A stretch of DNA of 41,205 nt from a virus: the IMG/VR virus record IMGVR_UViG_3300036828_000396, positions 1-41,205 of that record; one strand, written 5' to 3'. A model generated the notes under the pieces. It had not been told where the DNA came from, searched no databases, and saw nothing but the letters and a program-made list of their open reading frames with translations. How positions within the stretch are numbered: the stretch's first letter is position 1; each line of letters opens with the position of its first letter. The position numbers and the translations under genes are program-made. This document shows, piece by piece, positions 2,432 to 31,031 of this stretch.

Positions 2432-5308
2432 CTATCCTACCATTCCGGCTATCGCTGCCGTCCAATTGGCTTGCGAGGTCGAAACCTGACCGTAAGCCGC
2501 GAGCGTGTGGTAACCCTCGGCGGTGACCGCTGACCCGTGCGCAGCCGTGAACGAAGACGTGGTCCCACCCGGCACGCCAGCGGCGTTTCCGCTGGCATTC
2601 ACGCCGTCAACGTTGACGTAGCCAGTCGCGGTCAATTGCGCGGTGGACAGCGCATAATTCGACGCCACGGCAAAATACTTCTCATTGGCAAAGCAGATGA
2701 AGAACGCCGCCGCGACCGAAATTCCGCTGGTTGAGGTGAGCCCACTGTTCGTCCCGGCGTTGAAGACGTTGAACGGCTGGCGATTGAACCATGTGCGGAC
2801 GTAGCGCTGTGACCCACTGTCGGCAAAAGACCCGCTGCTCGGCGCGTTGCTGGTGGTGTAGACGATGCCAACCAGGGTGCGGCTGTCGTCGCCCGCCTTG
2901 ATCTCGGTGCCCTCGTTGCCGACCGTGGTCGAGGTCGCGTGCCCGGTGACGGAGAGGTCGAGCGCAACAGCCGTGCCGGTGTAGTAGGCGTAAACGTAAT
3001 ACAGAACATTGGTCCCGACCGACTGCCCGGCGACGCCGTTGATGGTCGCATTCGTCGCGGTCATCGTCAGGTTGGCAAACTTGTAGAGCACGCCGTTGAT
3101 CCTGATCAGCGCGCCCTGGTAGGGGCTGAAGGCAATGACCTGACTGGGGCTGGCACCAGAAATCGTCAGCCGCCCGCACTGCGGTGCACCCATGACCGCC
3201 GAGGCCAACGCTCCTCCGGCATTGGTGATGTCGGTCGCGGTCATGGTGACCGCTCCGGCCCGGCCGTTCCAGGTGGTCACCCCACCCGCTCCGGCCAGCT
3301 GGTTCATCACGAACTGCGTGGTCGCGAGCTGCGTCGTTGAGGTGCCCAGCGCCGCCGTGGGCGCGGCCGGAACACCCGTGAACGTCGGGCTCGCCAGCAA
3401 CGCCCCGCCCGCCGCGCTGATGTCATTGGCAATCAAGGTGATCGCCCCGGTGCGGCCGTTGAACGATGACACGCTGTTGTTCAAGGCCGTGTGCACGAAC
3501 GCCGTGGTGGCGAACATGGTCGAATTGTCGGTCTGCGCCGCAGTCGGGCCGGACGGCGTGCCCGTGAAGATCGGCGATGCCAGCAGCGCCCCGCCCGCCC
3601 CGGTGATGTCGGCGGACGTGAGGGTTACCGCGCCGGTTCGCGTGTTGAACGACGCCACCCCCAGCTGCCCCAGCACGAAGGCACAGGTCGCCAGCTGGTT
3701 CGAGTTGGTGCCCGGCGCGGCCGTGGGCGCGGTCGGAGTGCCGGTCAGCGCCGGATTGGCCAGCGGCGCACCACCCGCCCCGGTCACGTCGGCCGTGGTC
3801 AGCGTCACCGCCCCGGATCGAGTGTTGAAGGTCGTCACCCCACCCGCCGCCGCAAGGCGCGCGAGCACCCAGGCAGTCGTCGCCAGCGCGGTGGAGTTGT
3901 CGTTGGTCGGCGGATTGGGCGCGGTCGGCGTGCCGGTGAAGGCCGGGCTCGCCACCAGGGCACCACCCGCCGCGCTGATGTCGTTCGCCAGCAGGCTGAC
4001 CGCCCCAGTGCGGCCCATGAAGCTCGAAACCCCGCCGCCAACCCCGATCGCCGCCTCGACAAACGCTGTGGTGGCGATACGGGTCGAATTGTCGGCCGCT
4101 GGTGGCGTGGGCGCGGTCGGGGTGCCCGTGAGGGCGGGCGACGCCGATAACGCACCACCGACCGCCGTAACGTCCCCGGCGGTCAGCACCACAACGCCCG
4201 ACCGGCCGTTGAAGCTCTCCACCGTCCCGGCGGCGAGCGCCGCCATGACAAACGCGCTGGTCGCCAGCTGCGTCGTGCTGGTGCCCGGTGCTGCTGTCGG
4301 CCCAGACGGCGTTCCCGTGAAGGTCGGCGAGGCGATCGGCGCACCGCCAGCCCCAGTGATGTCCGCCGTGGTCAGCACCACCGCACCCGTGCGGGTGTTG
4401 AACGACGACACGCCCGCCGTCGCGGCGGTGACCGCCGCGTGAACAAACGCCGTGGTGGCCAACTGGCCCGTGCTGTTCGCCGTCGCCGCCGTGGGCGCGG
4501 TCGGGATGCCGCTGAAATTCGGGCTCTGCAACGGCGCATAGGCCGACAGGTCCGGCCCGCTCTGGATTTCGTCCAGCACCCAATCGCGCAGATCGTCCAG
4601 GCTCTCGTCCACGAACATCGTCGTGGCAATGCGCGTGCTGGCATCGCCCAGCGCCGGATTGGGCGCGATCGGGGTGCCGCCCGCCGCGTACGCCGCATTG
4701 ATGTCGTCCGTGGTCAGGGTGACGCAGCCAAAGCGGCCGTTAAAGCTCTGCACCACCGGAGCACAGGCAAACAACCCCTTGACCCACGCCGTCGTCGCCA
4801 CCGTGTCGTCGTTCTGATTGAGGTCCCACGGGGTCGGCGCAGTCACTACTCCAGCAAAGCTCGGGTTCCAGACCGGAGCGCCACCCGCGCGCAGCACGTC
4901 ATCCAATTCGAGCTGCACCGGGCCGGTGCGGAAATTGAAGCTCGCCACCGTGTTGTCGATGACAAAATTGCTTAGATTGTCGAGGTCGGCGGTCGTCGTC
5001 ACCGGAACGCCGTTGATGGAAATGCCGTTGGTCGCGGTCAGCGTCGGCACCTGCAGCGCCGTGGAAAACTGGAACACGCTGCCGTCAAAGACCAGCGTCT
5101 GCGTTCCCCACTTCAAACCGAAGTTGGTGGCAAAGTTGATATTGTCGGGGCGCACCAGCATCGCCGTGTTGATCAGGTCGCTGGGATTGATCGCCGCATA
5201 CGGGCCGCCGATGCCGCCCTGCTGGATCAACAACAAATCGCCCGCACCATTGGTACTGACGACCGGATACTGACCGATCTGCCTGACGTTGATGACAAAA
5301 TCGTCCAC
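2432..5308 (-). CDS. Tail fibre with nine tandem repeats
   Basis: 958 residues, GTG start. After about 100 N-terminal residues the chain carries nine units of about 60 residues, each opening with a V.SFN.R.GAV motif and closing with FTGTP.APT and QLATTAFV. This is the repeat found in many prophage fibre shafts (Phage_fiber_2-like). The second unit carries an insertion and the ninth is truncated. The last 250 residues are non-repetitive and beta-rich and probably form the receptor-binding tip. The repeats are a likely site of recombination and length change. Confidence 0.85.
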   Translation of the reverse strand: MDDFVINVRQIGQYPVVSTNGAGDLLLIQQGGIGGPYAAINPSDLINTAMLVRPDNINFATNFGLKWGTQTLVFDGSVFQFSTALQVPTLTATNGISINGVPVTTTADLDNLSNFVIDNTVASFNFRTGPVQLELDDVLRAGGAPVWNPSFAGVVTAPTPWDLNQNDDTVATTAWVKGLFACAPVVQSFNGRFGCVTLTTDDINAAYAAGGTPIAPNPALGDASTRIATTMFVDESLDDLRDWVLDEIQSGPDLSAYAPLQSPNFSGIPTAPTAATANSTGQLATTAFVHAAVTAATAGVSSFNTRTGAVVLTTADITGAGGAPIASPTFTGTPSGPTAAPGTSTTQLATSAFVMAALAAGTVESFNGRSGVVVLTAGDVTAVGGALSASPALTGTPTAPTPPAADNSTRIATTAFVEAAIGVGGGVSSFMGRTGAVSLLANDISAAGGALVASPAFTGTPTAPNPPTNDNSTALATTAWVLARLAAAGGVTTFNTRSGAVTLTTADVTGAGGAPLANPALTGTPTAPTAAPGTNSNQLATCAFVLGQLGVASFNTRTGAVTLTSADITGAGGALLASPIFTGTPSGPTAAQTDNSTMFATTAFVHTALNNSVSSFNGRTGAITLIANDISAAGGALLASPTFTGVPAAPTAALGTSTTQLATTQFVMNQLAGAGGVTTWNGRAGAVTMTATDITNAGGALASAVMGAPQCGRLTISGASPSQVIAFSPYQGALIRINGVLYKFANLTMTATNATINGVAGQSVGTNVLYYVYAYYTGTAVALDLSVTGHATSTTVGNEGTEIKAGDDSRTLVGIVYTTSNAPSSGSFADSGSQRYVRTWFNRQPFNVFNAGTNSGLTSTSGISVAAAFFICFANEKYFAVASNYALSTAQLTATGYVNVDGVNASGNAAGVPGGTTSSFTAAHGSAVTAEGYHTLAAYGQVSTSQANWTAAIAGMVG

Positions 5309-5315
5309 GGCACAC

Positions 5316-5870
5316 CTACGCGGCTGGCGTCTGCGAAATGTTCAACACTTCCTGATAATGCTGGATCACTGCCGCCTGCGTGCGGGCGAGCGCAGTCTGC
5401 GCCTGCACCAGCGACATCAGCGTGTCGGCATCCTGCGGGATCGGCCAGGACGGTAACGACGCGGGCGGGGTGAACGACCACGGCGCAGCGCTGGCCGAAG
5501 TCGCGAGGTTGGTGGTGTAGGTGCCCACCCCGCCGGGCGAGCCGGTAACCTGCGTCACAATCAGCGTGCTGGGCGGCGCACCCGCCCCCGACACGGCCGC
5601 GCCGATGACGATGGAATTGGCCACCGCGCTGACCGCAATGCTGGTGCCGCTCGAGGTCACCGTGCCGGTCGCCACCGGCTGCGGTGTCGGCCCGCCCTGC
5701 GCTTGGTTGAGGATCGACTGGTAGCGGTTGATCAGCGCTTCCTGATCAGCAATCGTCTTGGTCTGCGTCTGTACGATCAACAACAGGCTGCCAGCGTCGC
5801 CACTGTCCGGCCACGTCGCCGCCAGCGGAGACGGCGCGGCGGCGGGAACCACATGCAAATTTGCATTCAT
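5316..5870 (-). CDS. Structural protein with inserted glycine-rich beta module
   Basis: About 184 residues; ATG at 5870 with AGGAG just upstream (a GTG one codon earlier is also open). Two helical parts (about 25-60 and 140-185), each with an alternating Q/A/L pattern, flank a beta-rich insert (about 65-130) of the form GTVTSSGTSI...VTQVTG..GG.GTYTT. The same module occurs in the protein at 22945-23685. Position between adaptor and fibre suggests a fibre-attachment or neck protein. Confidence 0.6.
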   Translation of the reverse strand: MNANLHVVPAAAPSPLAATWPDSGDAGSLLLIVQTQTKTIADQEALINRYQSILNQAQGGPTPQPVATGTVTSSGTSIAVSAVANSIVIGAAVSGAGAPPSTLIVTQVTGSPGGVGTYTTNLATSASAAPWSFTPPASLPSWPIPQDADTLMSLVQAQTALARTQAAVIQHYQEVLNISQTPAA

Positions 5871-9569: not shown

Positions 9570-9672
9570 TACATATGTACTTGATGTAAAGCATTAAGTT
9601 ATTACGGGGTCCTCCCAATCGCCGAGACAGAGATCGGGGTTGGTGTCAAGAGAAAAGGGTTGGGCGGCTGAA
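9570..9672 (+). repeat. 103-bp repeat, copy A (inverted copy at 41103-41205)
   Basis: Reading 9570-9672 gives exactly the reverse complement of 41103-41205 over 103 bases. It contains palindrome TACATATGTA, an imperfect dyad ACTTGATG-taaag-CATTAAGT, and a hairpin-capable segment around 9614-9644. Both copies lie upstream of an early-type operon and point the same way relative to transcription, suggesting shared control. Copy B ends at the window edge, so an assembly cause is possible. Confidence 0.9.
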
Positions 9673-9695
9673 GCGTCTCTGTAAAAAAATCCCTC

Positions 9696-9724
9696 TTGAC
9701 ACTTCCGGCCGACAAGAATAGATC
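9696..9724 (+). promoter_or_regulatory. Candidate sigma70-type promoter for the 9770 operon
   Basis: TTGACA at 9696-9701 is followed after 17 bases by TAGATC. The -35 is part of CTCTTGACAC (9693-9702), which is an exact inverted copy of GTGTCAAGAG at 9643-9652 inside the 103-bp repeat, so an operator may overlap it. The -10 is a weak match. The start codon at 9770 is about 45 bases downstream. Confidence 0.45.
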
Positions 9725-9769: not shown

Positions 9770-10423
9770 ATGGCGTTTATCTTAATCGATGCATGGATCG
9801 TCGGCACGTCGCCGATGCTGCAGAACCGGGCCACCGAAGAAGCGCTGTCCGGTAAGACTAGAAGCAACAATCCTGGCGAACCGGATGACCCGCGCGATAT
9901 AGCCGAGAAAAAGGTTTACCGCTTGCCCAGCCGACAACTGGCAATGCCCGGTGCTGCGTTCGCCAGAATGCTGCGTGAAGCGGGCGGAAGTCATAAGTCG
10001 AAGGGCTCGCGCAAGAGCATCAAATATCTGGTTCCCAGCGCGGTCCAAGTTTTGGATGAACTGTGCGGACTCTATCTCGAAGACCGTAAAACTCCCCTCA
10101 AAGAGTTTGAAGTTTACAGCGTGCCGGTGACAATCCCGGCAACCAAGGGCAAGATCATGTGCCATCGGGCGCGGTTCAATTCGTGGAGCACCAAGGTGAC
10201 GTTGAGGGTGAACAACGACATTTTGGATCAGCAGATGGTGCGCCGTCTGATGATCGAAGGCACACAACAGATTGGACTGGGTGACTGGCGGCCGGAAAAA
10301 GGTGGTTCGTTCGGCATGAGCGATGTTGTTGAGTGGAAAATTGTTTCAAGTAAACCGCCGTTGACTGTCGCCGAAAGACATGCCGGCGGGCTGAAGCCGG
10401 CATCCGCAGAAGCGGCGGAATGA
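9770..10423 (+). CDS. GLGDWRP-motif phage protein, possibly RAMP/Cas7-like
   Basis: 217 residues, GGAGAG before ATG. Conserved-looking blocks are SPMLQNRATEEA near the N-terminus, LAMPGAAFARMLREAGG (about 57-73), a basic linker, a beta stretch KIMCHRARFNSW (about 126-137) and IGLGDWRPEKGGSFG (about 166-180). This block order recurs in uncharacterised phage early proteins. I recall only faint resemblance to RAMP (Cas7-like) RNA-binding folds and cannot verify it. The stop codon is 4 bases before the GGCNN tract, suggesting a functional pair. Function unknown. Confidence 0.6.
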   Translation: MAFILIDAWIVGTSPMLQNRATEEALSGKTRSNNPGEPDDPRDIAEKKVYRLPSRQLAMPGAAFARMLREAGGSHKSKGSRKSIKYLVPSAVQVLDELCGLYLEDRKTPLKEFEVYSVPVTIPATKGKIMCHRARFNSWSTKVTLRVNNDILDQQMVRRLMIEGTQQIGLGDWRPEKGGSFGMSDVVEWKIVSSKPPLTVAERHAGGLKPASAEAAE

Positions 10424-10427
10424 TCCT

Positions 10428-11017
10428 GGCACTGCGTGGCAAGGCCGTGCAGTCCTAGGCAGGGCGGGGCCAGTCAAGGCTCGGCTCGGTAGGGCAAGGC
10501 CCGGTAAGGCGAGGCAATGCGAGGCACGGCCTAGCGTGGTCTAGCTGGGCGGGGCGACGCGCGGCATGGCGATGCGCGGCACGGCATGGCTTGGCTTGGC
10601 CCGGCACGGCCCGGCAGAGCATGGCTCGGCACAGCGCGGCTCGGCAGGGCGAGGTTCTGCGCGGTGTGGCATGGCTAGGCGTGGCCGGGCTTGGTCTGGC
10701 AGGGCGGGGTGTGGCTTGGCGTGGCAAGGCTTTGCGGGGCACGGCGTAGCTAGGTCGGGCAAGGTGAGGCACGGCATGGAGTGGCAAGGTATGGCACGGC
10801 TGGGCTTGGCAAGGCGAGGCGGGGCGAGGTCCGGCATGGCTGGGCACGGCACGGCAACACTCGGCGAGGCACGGCAAGGCTTAGTCTGGCATGGCGCGGC
10901 GATGCTGGGCGCGGAGCGGCTTGGCTGGGCAGCGCAAGGTATGGCACGGCGTGGCACAGCCCGGTTCGGCGGGGCGTGGCTTGGCCAAGCGCGGCAAGGC
11001 AAGGCACGGTCTAACGC
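10428..11017 (+). repeat. 590-bp tract of 118 in-phase GGCNN pentamers
   Basis: From 10428, four bases after a stop codon, the plus strand can be cut into 118 consecutive 5-mers of form GGCNN without a single insertion or deletion, ending at 11017 just before an AGGAG ribosome binding site. About two thirds are exact GGC; most others differ by one base at position 1 or 3, while the central G is almost invariant. Positions 4-5 vary freely. Because 5 and 3 are coprime, all six frames are largely open; the ORFs across it are artefacts. GG every 5 nt also makes it a dense two-tetrad G-quadruplex motif. Confidence 0.9.
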
Positions 11018-11028
11018 AGGAGAGCAAA

Positions 11029-11190
11029 ATGCTGTGGAAATTTCTGCTTGTGGCAGCAATTTACCTGTTCATAAATTTCTGGGGCACCTCGACCGTGCTC
11101 GGTATCATGTTAATTTCTGTGATGGTTGGCTGTGCTATCGCTGGGGCCAGCCGTCTGACTGACAGGCTTGTAGGGGTTGAGCGAGAATGA
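11029..11190 (+). CDS. Small membrane protein
   Basis: 53 residues starting 6 bases after AGGAGAGC. Most of the chain is hydrophobic (about residues 3-42, enough for one long or two short spans), followed by a charged tail (DRLVGVERE). It begins immediately after the pentamer tract and its end overlaps the next gene by 4 bases. A membrane-anchored early protein, perhaps an exclusion or lysis-control factor; unproven. Confidence 0.6.
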   Translation: MLWKFLLVAAIYLFINFWGTSTVLGIMLISVMVGCAIAGASRLTDRLVGVERE

Positions 11191-11465
11191 AACTCTATCG
11201 GTTCAACGATGCCGTTGCGATGGCGCAGAAGCTGTGCGAGCGCAGCGACAAGAGCGTCGAGGTCTGGCAGCAATGGATGTGTGTCGGGTGCGGCACCAAG
11301 CAAACGATGTCGGACCCGTTCACGTTCTACACACACGGCCGTTGTGAGCAGTGCGACCGCCTGTCAAATCTTGAGGCGGACGGCTGCAACTTTGCCATCA
11401 CGTGGTCGCGACCTCGTCCTCGACAAAAGTCCAGTTCACCGTCCCCATCCCCGACAGACCAATAG
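11187..11465 (+). CDS. Zinc-ribbon protein
   Basis: 92 residues, ATGA overlap with the preceding gene. CVGCGTKQTM and, about 20 residues later, HGRCEQCDRLSN form a four-cysteine zinc ribbon (about residues 31-59). Similar small proteins with a KLCE...W..W.C.GC opening occur in other phages. The last 20 or so residues are low-complexity (SSSPSPSP) and are encoded over the convergent endolysin 3' end (68-bp overlap), so the native stop may have been lost or moved. Confidence 0.6.
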   Translation: MKLYRFNDAVAMAQKLCERSDKSVEVWQQWMCVGCGTKQTMSDPFTFYTHGRCEQCDRLSNLEADGCNFAITWSRPRPRQKSSSPSPSPTDQ

Positions 11466-12807
11466 CTTTGGCCGCGCCAGGGGTCAGGTCGAGCCCGGCC
11501 CCATTCGAGGTCTTGCCCTGATTTTTGCCGCGCGGGATTGTCGATCCCTTGGGTTCTGCGACGGGGCGGGCGTTTCCCAGTACGTACTTGTCGTCGTCTA
11601 TGACCCAAGGTCCAACGTCGCGGATTTGGCAGATTGCTTTGCGGCCGTTGACGGTGTTTTGCACCAACACCAGCGGCCGCTCGCCAGCGAATTTCCACGG
11701 CAGCGCGCAGCTGATTTCTTGATCCGTGATGAAATCGTACGGCGCATAGGCGCTGTTGTTTGGGTCGGCATTACCGCCAAACACGGAGCAGATGATGGCT
11801 GTGTGGTTAGGGGCGAAGGTCGCGGGCACGTAGGGCGGCAGGTTGTAAACCTGCTCCAACTTCGTCCAGGTCTGCGGCCCGACAATGCCGTCATTGACGA
11901 GGTCCTCGTCGGATTGGAACTGCATCACCGCGTTCTCGGTCTGTGTACCGAACACGCCATCGACGCCGGTCGGGATCAGGCACTCTTGCACGGTTTGCAC
12001 GTCCGGCCCGCGCGACCCGACCATGACAGTCGGCCGCTGTGACGGCGGTGGTGGCTCGACCTGGAAGTCCTCGCCGTCCACCGTCACCATCACGTCACCG
12101 GAATACTTCAGGGTGATGTTAACGAGGTCGTTGGGGTCGCCGGCCCGCACCGTGTCGTTGTTGATGGTGACGGTCGGGTTGCCCTTGGTCGTAATGGCAA
12201 CGTCCACCACGTTCTCGCCGGTCGGTAGCGGCGGCTCGGTAGGTGGCTCTACCGGTGGCTCTACCGGTGGCTCTACCGGTTCGCCGGGCAGGGTGATTTC
12301 GGCGAGGCTTTCAGCAATGGCGCGGCAGATCGCCTCGAAGTTGGTGCGGTACAGGTTGGCGTCGGCCGAACTGTCCACGAAACAAACTTCCAGCAGCACA
12401 CTGGGCTTGGCCGTCTTGTTCAGAAAATACAGGTCACTGCGGTATTTAGGTCCTCTGTTGATGAACCCGCCGCTTTTGGCCATTGCCTTGGCAACGCGGT
12501 CGGCCCAGGCTGACTGGGTCACATAGAGACACTCAGTCCCCATGGGGTTGGAGGTAGTTTGGTAAGCATTGAAATGGACCGACACATCACGGTCACGGAC
12601 TTGACTATTGTGGTAATTGACGATGTTGCTGAGGTTCTGATTGACGGAGGTGGCCGTATTTTCGTGATAGACTTTACACCCGACGCCCGCACCATTGAGC
12701 AACTCGCCGACGCGGTCGCAGACCTTACGTGCTTCTGTGACTTCATTGAGTACACCGGAAGCGCCGGACACCTTCGCACCGTGCCCGGACGAGATCACTA
12801 GGTTCAT
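11398..12807 (-). CDS. Three-domain endolysin: amidase, peptidoglycan-binding, double-psi barrel
   Basis: 469 residues, AGGAG before ATG. Residues 1-172 are an Amidase_3-type N-acetylmuramoyl-L-alanine amidase with zinc/catalytic pattern H9, E22, H78 and E140. A (VEPP)n linker and a small beta stretch follow (175-252). Residues 260-320 are a PG_binding_1-like helical domain (GVDGVFGTQTENAVMQFQ). Residues about 336-455 form a double-psi beta-barrel-like domain with CQIRDVGPW (D397) and GAGLDLTPGAAKAIGL (D440), as in RlpA/expansin-type glycan enzymes. There is no signal peptide, so export would need the holin. The domain set is unusual for an endolysin. Confidence 0.85.
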   Translation of the reverse strand: MNLVISSGHGAKVSGASGVLNEVTEARKVCDRVGELLNGAGVGCKVYHENTATSVNQNLSNIVNYHNSQVRDRDVSVHFNAYQTTSNPMGTECLYVTQSAWADRVAKAMAKSGGFINRGPKYRSDLYFLNKTAKPSVLLEVCFVDSSADANLYRTNFEAICRAIAESLAEITLPGEPVEPPVEPPVEPPTEPPLPTGENVVDVAITTKGNPTVTINNDTVRAGDPNDLVNITLKYSGDVMVTVDGEDFQVEPPPPSQRPTVMVGSRGPDVQTVQECLIPTGVDGVFGTQTENAVMQFQSDEDLVNDGIVGPQTWTKLEQVYNLPPYVPATFAPNHTAIICSVFGGNADPNNSAYAPYDFITDQEISCALPWKFAGERPLVLVQNTVNGRKAICQIRDVGPWVIDDDKYVLGNARPVAEPKGSTIPRGKNQGKTSNGAGLDLTPGAAKAIGLSGMGTVNWTFVEDEVATT

Positions 12808-28401: not shown

Positions 28402-28658
28402 TAGCGGCTCCAGGGTCCTGACCAGGGTGGCGGACACGGGAACGGCCCGCTTGAAATCAGGCCGGTACCAGCCGCGCGGGTTTCACTCTCCCCCGGCCAT
28501 GGGGTGCGCGGCAGCGGCCAGCCTCCGCGCCATGGATTTGGATTTCTGGGTATCTGCCAATAGGCCGGATCGTTCCAGTGTGATCCGGGTATTACGTAAC
28601 GCGGCGACCGCGCAGGCGAGGCTGGCGGTAATGGTCCGCAATTCGGCGATGGAGGCAC
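28401..28658 (-). CDS. Short Trp/Pro-rich protein after the capsid gene (start uncertain)
   Basis: The frame from a GTG near 28658 encodes PPSPNCGPLPPASP and HWNDPAYWQIPRNPNPWRGGWPLPRTPW and ends TAATG, overlapping the next start. The coupling and aromatic pattern suggest a real small structural protein. Another frame (28483-28725) is also open with good third-position GC, so the assignment is not firm. Confidence 0.35.
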   Translation of the reverse strand: MPPSPNCGPLPPASPARSPRYVIPGSHWNDPAYWQIPRNPNPWRGGWPLPRTPWPGESETRAAGTGLISSGPFPCPPPWSGPWSR

Positions 28659-28693
28659 GACACCGCGCGCTACAGACGACGGCGGTCTCCCGA

Positions 28694-29731
28694 TTAGGGC
28701 GGCGGGGCGGGTCCAAATGTTGCACCTCCAGTAATCCCTTCGATCAGGATGCCGGTTGACGGTTTGGAACAAACGAGGTTGAGCGCAGTCAGCGACAAGC
28801 CGACGCTCGCGATCTGGCCTTGCGGGATTGTGCTGTACCACCCGGTCCAAGCAAAATTCGCGTCTTCGTGGATCACCAGGGTGATGTATTTGCTGTTGAA
28901 CCCGATGGCCGTCCCCTTCGGACAATTCAGATCGAAGAAGATCGGCGTATCGCCCAACAACAAACCACGGAAGCCGCTGTTGACCGGATCATCCTTGCCC
29001 CAGCGCGATGATGGGTCATTGTTGTAACGCTCGATGCTCATGAAGTCCGTCATCAAGGTTGTCCAGTCCTCGATGCTCATGACCACGAAGTCGAGCGCCT
29101 CGCCGCCGGAATGCTTGGCCGCATTGAGCAGATAAGGAATGAAAGTAGCGCGCGTCAGGGCCGCGCCCGCCGCCGGGACCTTCAGACCGGCCCAGGTCGG
29201 ATAGGTGGCGCGCGAAAGCCCGCCATAGGTGGCGACGGTCGTGCCGTCGTCGTAGGCGTCCAGCAAGCCAAACATTTGTAGCGCGACGTTGCCAGCATTT
29301 GAACCAAACAGCGCGACTGAAAGCGTATTCAGCGCTGAGTTTTTCAAATCATTGAGCTTGAGCATCAGCCGCGACGCAACTGCGATGGCGTCCTGAGTGA
29401 CAAGCTGTTCCAGACCGAGTGAACTGACCGGCGTTGCCAATGCGCATAAATTAAATTCGGCATTGACCGTCGCGGCCACGTCGGTCGGCAAATTAAACTG
29501 GCCAGCCGGACCAATCCAAGACGAGGTTACGTACTGGCCAGTCTGCACAGGCTGCGTGTATGGACTCACGCCGCCCGACGCGCGGATGGCATTTCTCAGA
29601 AGTAACGCGAGCAGGGGGTTCTGCCGATAGATCAAAACCACAACCATTTGCGCGAACACGCGACGCACGGTTGCCTCCAACTCCAGTCCGATTGGGCCGG
29701 ACGGAATTAGGCCACTGCCGAGAATAGGCAT
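28694..29731 (-). CDS. Major capsid protein
   Basis: 345 residues, preceded by a scaffold-like gene. N-terminal helix (LELEATVRRVFAQMVVVLIYRQNPLLALLLRN), central A-domain-like region (FVVMSIEDWTTLMTDFMSIERYNNDPSSRWG) and beta-rich end (FRGLLLGDTPIFFDLNCP, WTGWYSTIPQGQIAS) fit an HK97-fold capsid protein. Portal, scaffold, capsid, connector gene order supports this. No maturation protease is seen. Confidence 0.75.
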   Translation of the reverse strand: MPILGSGLIPSGPIGLELEATVRRVFAQMVVVLIYRQNPLLALLLRNAIRASGGVSPYTQPVQTGQYVTSSWIGPAGQFNLPTDVAATVNAEFNLCALATPVSSLGLEQLVTQDAIAVASRLMLKLNDLKNSALNTLSVALFGSNAGNVALQMFGLLDAYDDGTTVATYGGLSRATYPTWAGLKVPAAGAALTRATFIPYLLNAAKHSGGEALDFVVMSIEDWTTLMTDFMSIERYNNDPSSRWGKDDPVNSGFRGLLLGDTPIFFDLNCPKGTAIGFNSKYITLVIHEDANFAWTGWYSTIPQGQIASVGLSLTALNLVCSKPSTGILIEGITGGATFGPAPPP

Positions 29732-30515: not shown

Positions 30516-31031
30516 TCAGCTTCCCGGCATTGGTGTCGAGGGCATCGGTGCGGGCGCGGGTCCGGCGGGCTGGTCGGGACTGGCTCCCGGCTGCGGCCGT
30601 TGCTGCCCGGCGATGCGCGATAACATCGCGTTCTTGACCACGTTTTGCAACAAATCCTGCAGTTGGGTGCGCTGCACACCAAGCGCGGGCGAGCCCTGCG
30701 GCAGGTGGCGACTGATGCGCTGCAGTCCGCGCAGCACGTCCTGATAGGCTGGGTGGCCCAGGAGGCCGGGCAGGGCTTGGTTCATCATGGCAACGGCCTG
30801 CATCAGCATGGTCATCGAGCTTGCCTGATCACCGGGACCGGGCGCGCTGACCTGTTGGCCGCGTTGCCGGTTGGCGAGCGCCGCTATGATGGGTCCGCCG
30901 CCGCCAGGAGGAGCACCGCCAGGACCGCCGCCGCCAGGAGGGCCTGCACCAGGGGGTCCACCAGGAGCGCCGCCACCACTGGGAGGTCCGCCCTCTTCCG
31001 CCGCGTCCTGCTGACTGTCCAAAAATGACAT
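30516..31031 (-). CDS. Gly/Pro-rich head protein
   Basis: 171 residues. Residues about 14-48 are a GGPPG-type low-complexity stretch; about 70-140 are helical (SMTMLMQAVAMMNQALPGLLG and LQDLLQNVVKNAMLSRIAG), and the end is Pro-rich. It follows the portal after a stable intergenic hairpin. Possibly a portal-associated or scaffold accessory protein. Confidence 0.5.
   Translation of the reverse strand: MSFLDSQQDAAEEGGPPSGGGAPGGPPGAGPPGGGGPGGAPPGGGGPIIAALANRQRGQQVSAPGPGDQASSMTMLMQAVAMMNQALPGLLGHPAYQDVLRGLQRISRHLPQGSPALGVQRTQLQDLLQNVVKNAMLSRIAGQQRPQPGASPDQPAGPAPAPMPSTPMPGS

What the first reader, a model, noticed from the sequence alone, without database searches (positions are those of the whole stretch)
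10428..11017. A 590-bp register-perfect GGCNN pentamer tract
118 consecutive pentamers keep one register with no indel; the middle G is nearly invariant, GGC is exact in roughly two thirds, and the last two bases vary freely. A decaying simple repeat would lose register and would not keep three positions while randomising two. It is not coding: 5 is coprime to 3 and every frame is open. Possible jobs (inference): a tandem array of two-tetrad G-quadruplexes in RNA or DNA (GG every 5 nt with 3-nt loops), an R-loop-prone G-rich transcript, a scaffold for a protein with a 5-nt or half-turn footprint, or a decoy RNA rich in NGG.
Basis: partly seen in the sequence, partly recalled or inferred. Interest (0 to 1): 0.92.

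Follow-up and report, generated by a model that had tools for sequence, protein, structure and literature searches.

The report
Phage RNA-guide array aimed at defence gene
The odd 590-base GGCNN tract is a string of RNA guides for a CRISPR-like phage system (VIPR, described in a 2026 preprint), and one 16-repeat guide in it can be decoded as matching sspB, a gene of a bacterial anti-phage defence system.

Summary
The tract is real: 118 in-register pentamers at 10428-11017. Middle G is kept in 114/118 units, GGC is exact in 81/118, and the last two bases are near-random. It is not a free-standing oddity. The gene just upstream (9770-10423) is a RAMP/Cas7-fold protein (AlphaFold2 pLDDT 91.5; best solved matches are CRISPR Csm3, Z 13.7). 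It is homologous to the Vipr protein of phage SUSP1 (profile E about 1e-43, PDB 36pp). Gene plus tract is therefore a VIPR locus: RNA-guided DNA recognition in which only the NN of each GGY/NN repeat is read, with one target base skipped (PMC13142463). Two points go beyond that text. (1) The tract is one unpunctuated 118-repeat array; the closest Vipr relatives carry separate guides of about 10-24 repeats, and the preprint reports 9-16. (2) Reading NN as NNx, units 27-42 (10563-10642) match, with sharp edges, the antisense strand of the conserved DAVxxLGVGKNMVASI motif of SspB/DUF4007 (best 30/32), a component of phosphorothioation-based anti-phage defence; skipped bases fall on codon wobble positions. 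The likely job of that guide is silencing sspB: RNA-guided counter-defence. No 32/32 target was found, the host is unknown, and nothing was tested at the bench.

The parts
9696..9724 (+). Promoter-like sequence TTGACA-17-TAGATC upstream of vipr (inferred; weak -10)
   Evidence: Read from the sequence; a neighbouring stretch 9643-9688 is about 80% identical to DNA in the same place in the VIPR-less relative L137, which also has a TTGACA there. The consensus scan did not list it.
9770..10423 (+). vipr gene: 217-aa RAMP (Cas7-fold) protein
   Evidence: Family profile hits SUSP1 Vipr E 2.5e-45 and PDB 36pp E 9.5e-43; AF2 pLDDT 91.5; Csm3/Cas7 best in PDB, Z up to 13.7.
10428..11017 (+). Unpunctuated VIPR guide array: 118 GGY/NN repeats in one register
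   Evidence: same arrangement next to family proteins in 71 of 90 fetched loci with a long tract.
10563..10642 (+). Decoded guide of 16 repeats (units 27-42, counted from 0) matching the antisense of the sspB/DUF4007 motif [DE]AV[DE]ILGVG[KN][KN][IM]VAS[IM]
   Evidence: scans of decodes against Pfam and PADLOC.
11019..11029 (+). Ribosome-binding site region (GGAG) of the next gene, abutting the array: no terminal vrRNA tail seen
   Evidence: Sequence.

Best explanation
The tract is the guide-RNA array of a VIPR system. It is transcribed on the + strand with vipr; the Vipr RAMP protein oligomerises along the GGY parts of the repeat RNA and leaves the NN pairs free to pair with DNA, skipping one target base between pairs (NNxNNx...). 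Successive blocks of repeats in the unpunctuated array are different guides. One 16-repeat block (10563-10642) is complementary to the coding strand of sspB at its conserved DAVxxLGVGKNMVASI motif. Binding there would silence sspB and so disarm a phosphorothioation-based anti-phage defence of the host, or of an element in the host. Shown here: homology, fold, co-occurrence, repeat register, the spaced match and its 16-unit edges. Inferred from the preprint and the anatomy: transcription, complex formation, DNA binding, silencing, counter-defence. My confidence: VIPR locus 0.97; guide 27-42 aimed at sspB/DUF4007 0.88; the effect is counter-defence 0.55.
For: Vipr homology to SUSP1 and RAMP fold. 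Tract and family protein occur together, on one strand in all but one of the loci listed. NN contents are replaced wholesale between near-identical loci while GGY stays. Units 27-42 match L149/L150 30/32 and L151 29/32 in the antisense of DUF4007/SspB genes. An exact genome-wide search for units 27-36 hit that motif in 121 of the 122 places examined, the last being cut by a contig end; about 0.5 chance matches expected at equal base frequencies. Units 37-42, not used for selection, match 58% of bases against 18-20% in the flanks. Random-resolution decodes give DUF4007/SspB as top family in Pfam and PADLOC. Neighbouring genes are sspC and, in L200, sspD. Skipped bases fall on codon third positions.
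Against: No 32/32 target found (none in viral contigs; 638 proteobacterial genomes none within 3 mismatches). Only one of about seven possible guide blocks has a match. The matched loci are homologous, so they are not independent hits. Host unknown. The VIPR mechanism rests on one preprint. No vap gene or vrRNA tail is evident.
Confidence: 0.85

Rival explanations
1. It is a VIPR locus, but the sspB match is an accident, and the guides aim at rival phages, satellites or prophages as in the preprint.
For: All targets described for the two studied clades are mobile elements (PMC13142463). No exact sspB target was found. A weaker match to a ParB-like gene (L136) arose by chance in the same kind of search.
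Against: Sixteen-unit match with sharp edges, extension beyond the selecting pattern, and the family-level scan against all of Pfam and PADLOC.
Confidence: 0.1
2. VIPR guide against an Ssp/DUF4007 defence system, but one carried by a competing prophage or satellite, so that the act is inter-phage conflict and not host counter-defence.
For: Two of the best matches (L149/L150 and L151) lie on contigs held in a viral collection, though I did not verify that those contigs are viral.
Against: Most matches found are in bacterial genome contigs; they were not checked for being inside prophages.
Confidence: 0.25
3. The tract is a decayed or fused array that no longer makes guides: junctions and tails were lost and the repeats drift.
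For: 23 of 118 units are not GGY; no tail or junctions seen.
Against: No indel in 590 bp, an intact vipr gene, similar non-GGY units in the arrays of the nearest relative L051, and a still readable guide. L020, in another lineage, also has about 140 near-unbroken repeats.
Confidence: 0.08
4. Structural DNA/RNA element: G-quadruplex array, R-loop former or NGG decoy.
For: G-rich on one strand with GG every 5 nt.
Against: Predicted folding is hardly better than shuffles (z -1.6; that program does not score quadruplexes); no Rfam match; does not explain the RAMP partner or the decodable NN.
Confidence: 0.02

Closest known systems
VIPR, type locus Escherichia phage SUSP1 (PMC13142463; PDB 36pp)
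   Same: Homologous RAMP protein, GGY/NN repeats next to it on the same strand, NN read with a one-base skip on codon wobble positions, 16-repeat guide length at the top of the reported 9-16.
   Different: 118 repeats without punctuation or tail; no evident vap gene (the two downstream genes also occur in a VIPR-less relative); decoded target is an anti-phage defence gene and not a satellite or prophage regulator.
Class 1 CRISPR effectors (Csm3/Cas7 of types III and VII)
   Same: RAMP fold with glycine-rich loop; by analogy, oligomer on a guide RNA with periodic unpaired bases.
   Different: About 14% sequence identity; no cas gene set was recognised near the tract; guide information is interleaved with the repeat.
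Phage counter-defence (anti-CRISPR and anti-restriction factors, RNA anti-CRISPRs; from memory)
   Same: Predicted outcome: a bacterial defence is disabled.
   Different: By RNA-guided silencing of a defence gene, not by a protein inhibitor, DNA modification or decoy.

Membership tests
VIPR | Vipr protein of the RAMP family | tested here: met
   Profile match to SUSP1 Vipr; RAMP fold.
VIPR | Adjacent repeats of alternating GGY and variable NN | tested here: met
VIPR | Discrete guides of 9-16 repeats with a structured 3' tail (described for type II; other array layouts are mentioned) | tested here: inconclusive
   A 16-unit guide is decoded inside the array, but the array has 118 repeats and no punctuation or tail was seen. 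The figure on staggered arrays was not readable.
VIPR | Target read by NN with a one-base skip | tested here: met
   Match to sspB with skip 1, none with skips 0 or 2; computational only, best 30/32.
VIPR | Accessory vap gene (typical, not universal) | tested here: inconclusive
VIPR | Transcribed vrRNA bound by Vipr; repression of target | not testable with these tools
   Needs RNA sequencing and reporter assays.
CRISPR-Cas class 1 | Repeat-spacer array with identical repeats and adjacent cas genes | tested here: inconclusive
   No such array in the tract region and no cas gene among the proteins scanned; no dedicated CRISPR finder was run and not all genes were scanned.
Ssp/SspB as target | Matched gene is SspB/DUF4007 in an sspBC(D) operon | tested here: met
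   (L149, L180, L200).

The most novel reading that the evidence does not exclude
A phage uses an RNA-guided VIPR complex as counter-defence: a guide stored in an unpunctuated repeat array silences the sspB gene of a phosphorothioation-based anti-phage system at its most conserved motif, skipping wobble bases, so that synonymous changes would give no escape and many alleles are covered.
Probability: 0.5. Interest if true: 0.87.

Novelty: new variant of a known kind. Interest (0 to 1): 0.74.

Why it matters
It is an independent, sequence-only check of the VIPR reading code in a lineage far from the two that were studied, with a guide decoded and its target family named. If the sspB reading holds, phages carry programmable RNA-guided weapons against bacterial immune genes, a mirror image of CRISPR. 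The unpunctuated 118-repeat array asks how guides are delimited when no processing signal is seen, and how new guides are written in this interleaved format.

Tried and rejected
One contiguous 354-bp target for the whole tract: tblastn of the 118-codon decode in both orientations found nothing in phages, and the sspB match ends sharply at 16 units. ParB-like gene in L136, 21/24 over 12 units: chance level once the selecting pattern is discounted. Codon-position statistics of NN: first N is purine-rich across the family (67%), but my codon model was contaminated by shadow ORFs and could be confounded by GC; inconclusive. Other blocks of the tract against the fetched sspB-bearing loci: nothing above controls. 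Guides of other VIPR loci against the same DNA: none; among the fetched viral loci no clear excess for skip 1 once low-complexity arrays are set aside. Exact match to units 33-42 in viral contigs: zero. 638 proteobacterial genomes with up to 3 mismatches: zero. PHROG matches of decodes: chance level. Rfam: none. Hidden boundaries inside the tract: no periodic pattern of deviant units, no repeated NN words longer than three. Close DNA relatives of the region among phage records: none.

Full report
The observation. The tract at 10428-11017 is 118 pentamers in a single register. The middle G is kept in 114, the first G in 98; the third base is C in 101 and T in 15; the last two bases are nearly random (1.90 and 1.98 bits). 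Over any 590 bp elsewhere in the window at most 13 GGC fall in one phase, and shuffles of the tract reach at most 15, against 81 here. The remark that every frame is open is wrong (1-6 stops per frame), though the tract is not coding.

The neighbour. Four bases upstream ends a 217-aa gene (9770-10423) whose only database label was phrog_4652, unknown function. Searching phage records with the tract found similar tracts in Mycobacterium phages, Gordonia phages and a cyanophage; in the last two the gene just before the tract is a distant homologue. A pattern of eight GGCNN in IMG/VR returned 120 contigs, the scan stopping at its limit. An iterated profile found the family in 91 ORFs of the fetched loci; 71 of 90 loci with a long tract carry it, on the tract's strand in all but one of those listed. 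Some of the remaining loci are short or cut, so 71 of 90 is a lower bound.

What it is. [quoted passage not shown]). It describes VIPR: an ancestral RAMP protein plus vrRNAs of alternating GGY/NN, in which the NN pairs read DNA with one skipped base, the skips mostly on codon wobble positions. I tested membership directly. The SUSP1 genome, the preprint's main phage, holds a gene (28474-29061) hit by the family profile at E 2.5e-45, flanked by GGTNN arrays. The PDB holds 36pp, 'SUSP1 Vipr protein', matched at E 9.5e-43. The AlphaFold2 model of the window protein (pLDDT 91.5) matches CRISPR Csm3 and type VII Cas7-like chains over about 160-177 residues, Z up to 13.7. The window is a VIPR locus.

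How it differs. The window's nearest Vipr relative, L051 (54% identity), and the next ones (L082, L049, L055, L114; 34-39%) have separate guides of about 10-24 repeats, set apart by U-rich spacers or register-shifting junctions. In Mycobacterium phages the array is modules of mostly 11 pentamers plus GGCA (59 nt), gained and lost whole; Gordonia phages UmaThurman and Pipp have near-identical Vipr proteins and largely different NN content. Across 342 repeat runs the commonest lengths are 10-13. The window's 118 repeats in one register are an outlier, approached only by a few loci such as L020 (about 140), L047, L080 and L085. The preprint mentions staggered, overlapping arrays; that figure was not readable here, so I cannot say whether long arrays are already described. 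Deviant units show no clear period and the array runs straight into the next gene's ribosome-binding site with no evident tail.

A cassette. L137, a related virus (61% identical primase; roughly 65-80% DNA identity in aligned blocks), has the sequence upstream of vipr and the Zn-ribbon gene downstream, and a small membrane-protein gene in the place of 11030-11190, but neither vipr nor tract. So vipr plus array was gained in one line or lost in the other as a unit.

Decoding. I read each NN as the first two bases of a codon (NNx) and used decoded stretches as queries. The stretch from unit 28 to 57 led to three viral contigs. In L149/L150 units 27-42 match 30 of 32 bases, in L151 29 of 32, in the antisense of a gene; the L149 gene is DUF4007 (Pfam E 5.8e-71) and SspB (PADLOC E 3.5e-89). 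An exact search for units 27-36 in 84,980 genomes gave 119 rows, at its cap. Of 122 places examined (three of them from the viral contigs), 121 lie, in frame and antisense, in the motif DAVxxLGVGKNMVASI; the other is cut by a locus end. About 0.5 chance matches were expected for 20 fixed bases at equal base frequencies. These loci are homologous, so the count shows that the decoded stretch equals a conserved protein motif, not 121 separate events. The fairer test is the part not used for that selection: units 37-42 match 58% of bases, against 18% (units 43-54) and 20% (units 15-26) on either side, and the match stops abruptly at 26 and 43. As a further check, 40 decodes with ambiguous codons resolved at random were scanned against all of Pfam and PADLOC; DUF4007 (best E 0.0057, 6 members) and SspB (best E 0.00033, 6 members) came first. 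That check was made after the sspB match was known, but neither the libraries nor the resolutions were chosen by it; the earlier run with hand-chosen residues was not blind. The genes next to sspB are sspC and, in L200, sspD. DUF4007 is the SspB of Ssp and a part of type-4 BREX, both phosphorothioation-based (PMC12839542); SspB nicking is described as essential for phosphorothioate formation (PMC8092258).

Mechanism. Most likely Vipr coats the repeat RNA and each guide block finds double-stranded DNA through its NN pairs. The sspB block would repress sspB; repression from either strand was shown for SUSP1 VIPR in the preprint, not here. Since skips lie on wobble bases and the site is a highly conserved motif, one guide could cover many alleles; this is inference. 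Whether repressing the modification arm helps the phage depends on the restriction partner: PMC8092258 reports that unrestrained SspFGH impairs growth of the host, so harm to the host is another possible outcome.

Limits. No perfect target was found, the host is unknown, the other blocks of the tract have no target, and the Ssp system might sit on a rival element instead of the host chromosome. The VIPR mechanism rests on one preprint, not peer-reviewed in the form read here.

Noticed in passing
L020:6300-7021; also L047, L080, L085: Other very long in-register GGCNN arrays (L020 about 140 repeats; the others runs of 30-60) next to Vipr proteins of a different lineage, or, in L080, in a fragment where no vipr was found.
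   Followed up: partly
L051, - strand coordinates 4829-5544: The nearest Vipr relative has seven guides downstream of vipr and one upstream, separated by a recurring U-rich spacer (such as TTTTCTTCTCAACGGTTTTCGAGG), possibly a processing or termination signal.
   Followed up: no
L009, L010, L141-L148 (Mycobacterium phages): Arrays of mostly 59-nt modules (11 pentamers plus GGCA) gained and lost whole; the short ORFs annotated across them (e.g. BobaPhett 51) are probably not genes.
   Followed up: partly
window 11187-11465: Small ORF with two CxxC pairs (weak double zinc ribbon match), downstream of the array and also present in L137, which lacks VIPR.
   Followed up: partly
window 12242-12280: Three exact copies of a 12-bp unit GGTGGCTCTACC opposite the endolysin gene (11398-12807, - strand), probably a linker-coding repeat.
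   Followed up: no
window 30895-30978: Imperfect 15-bp tandem repeats (CCGCCGCCGCCAGGA type), probably coding for a low-complexity protein segment.
   Followed up: no
L136:2854-3603: ParB-like gene matching units 102-113 of the tract at 21/24 with skip 1; chance level given how it was found, but worth re-testing as a possible second target.
   Followed up: partly
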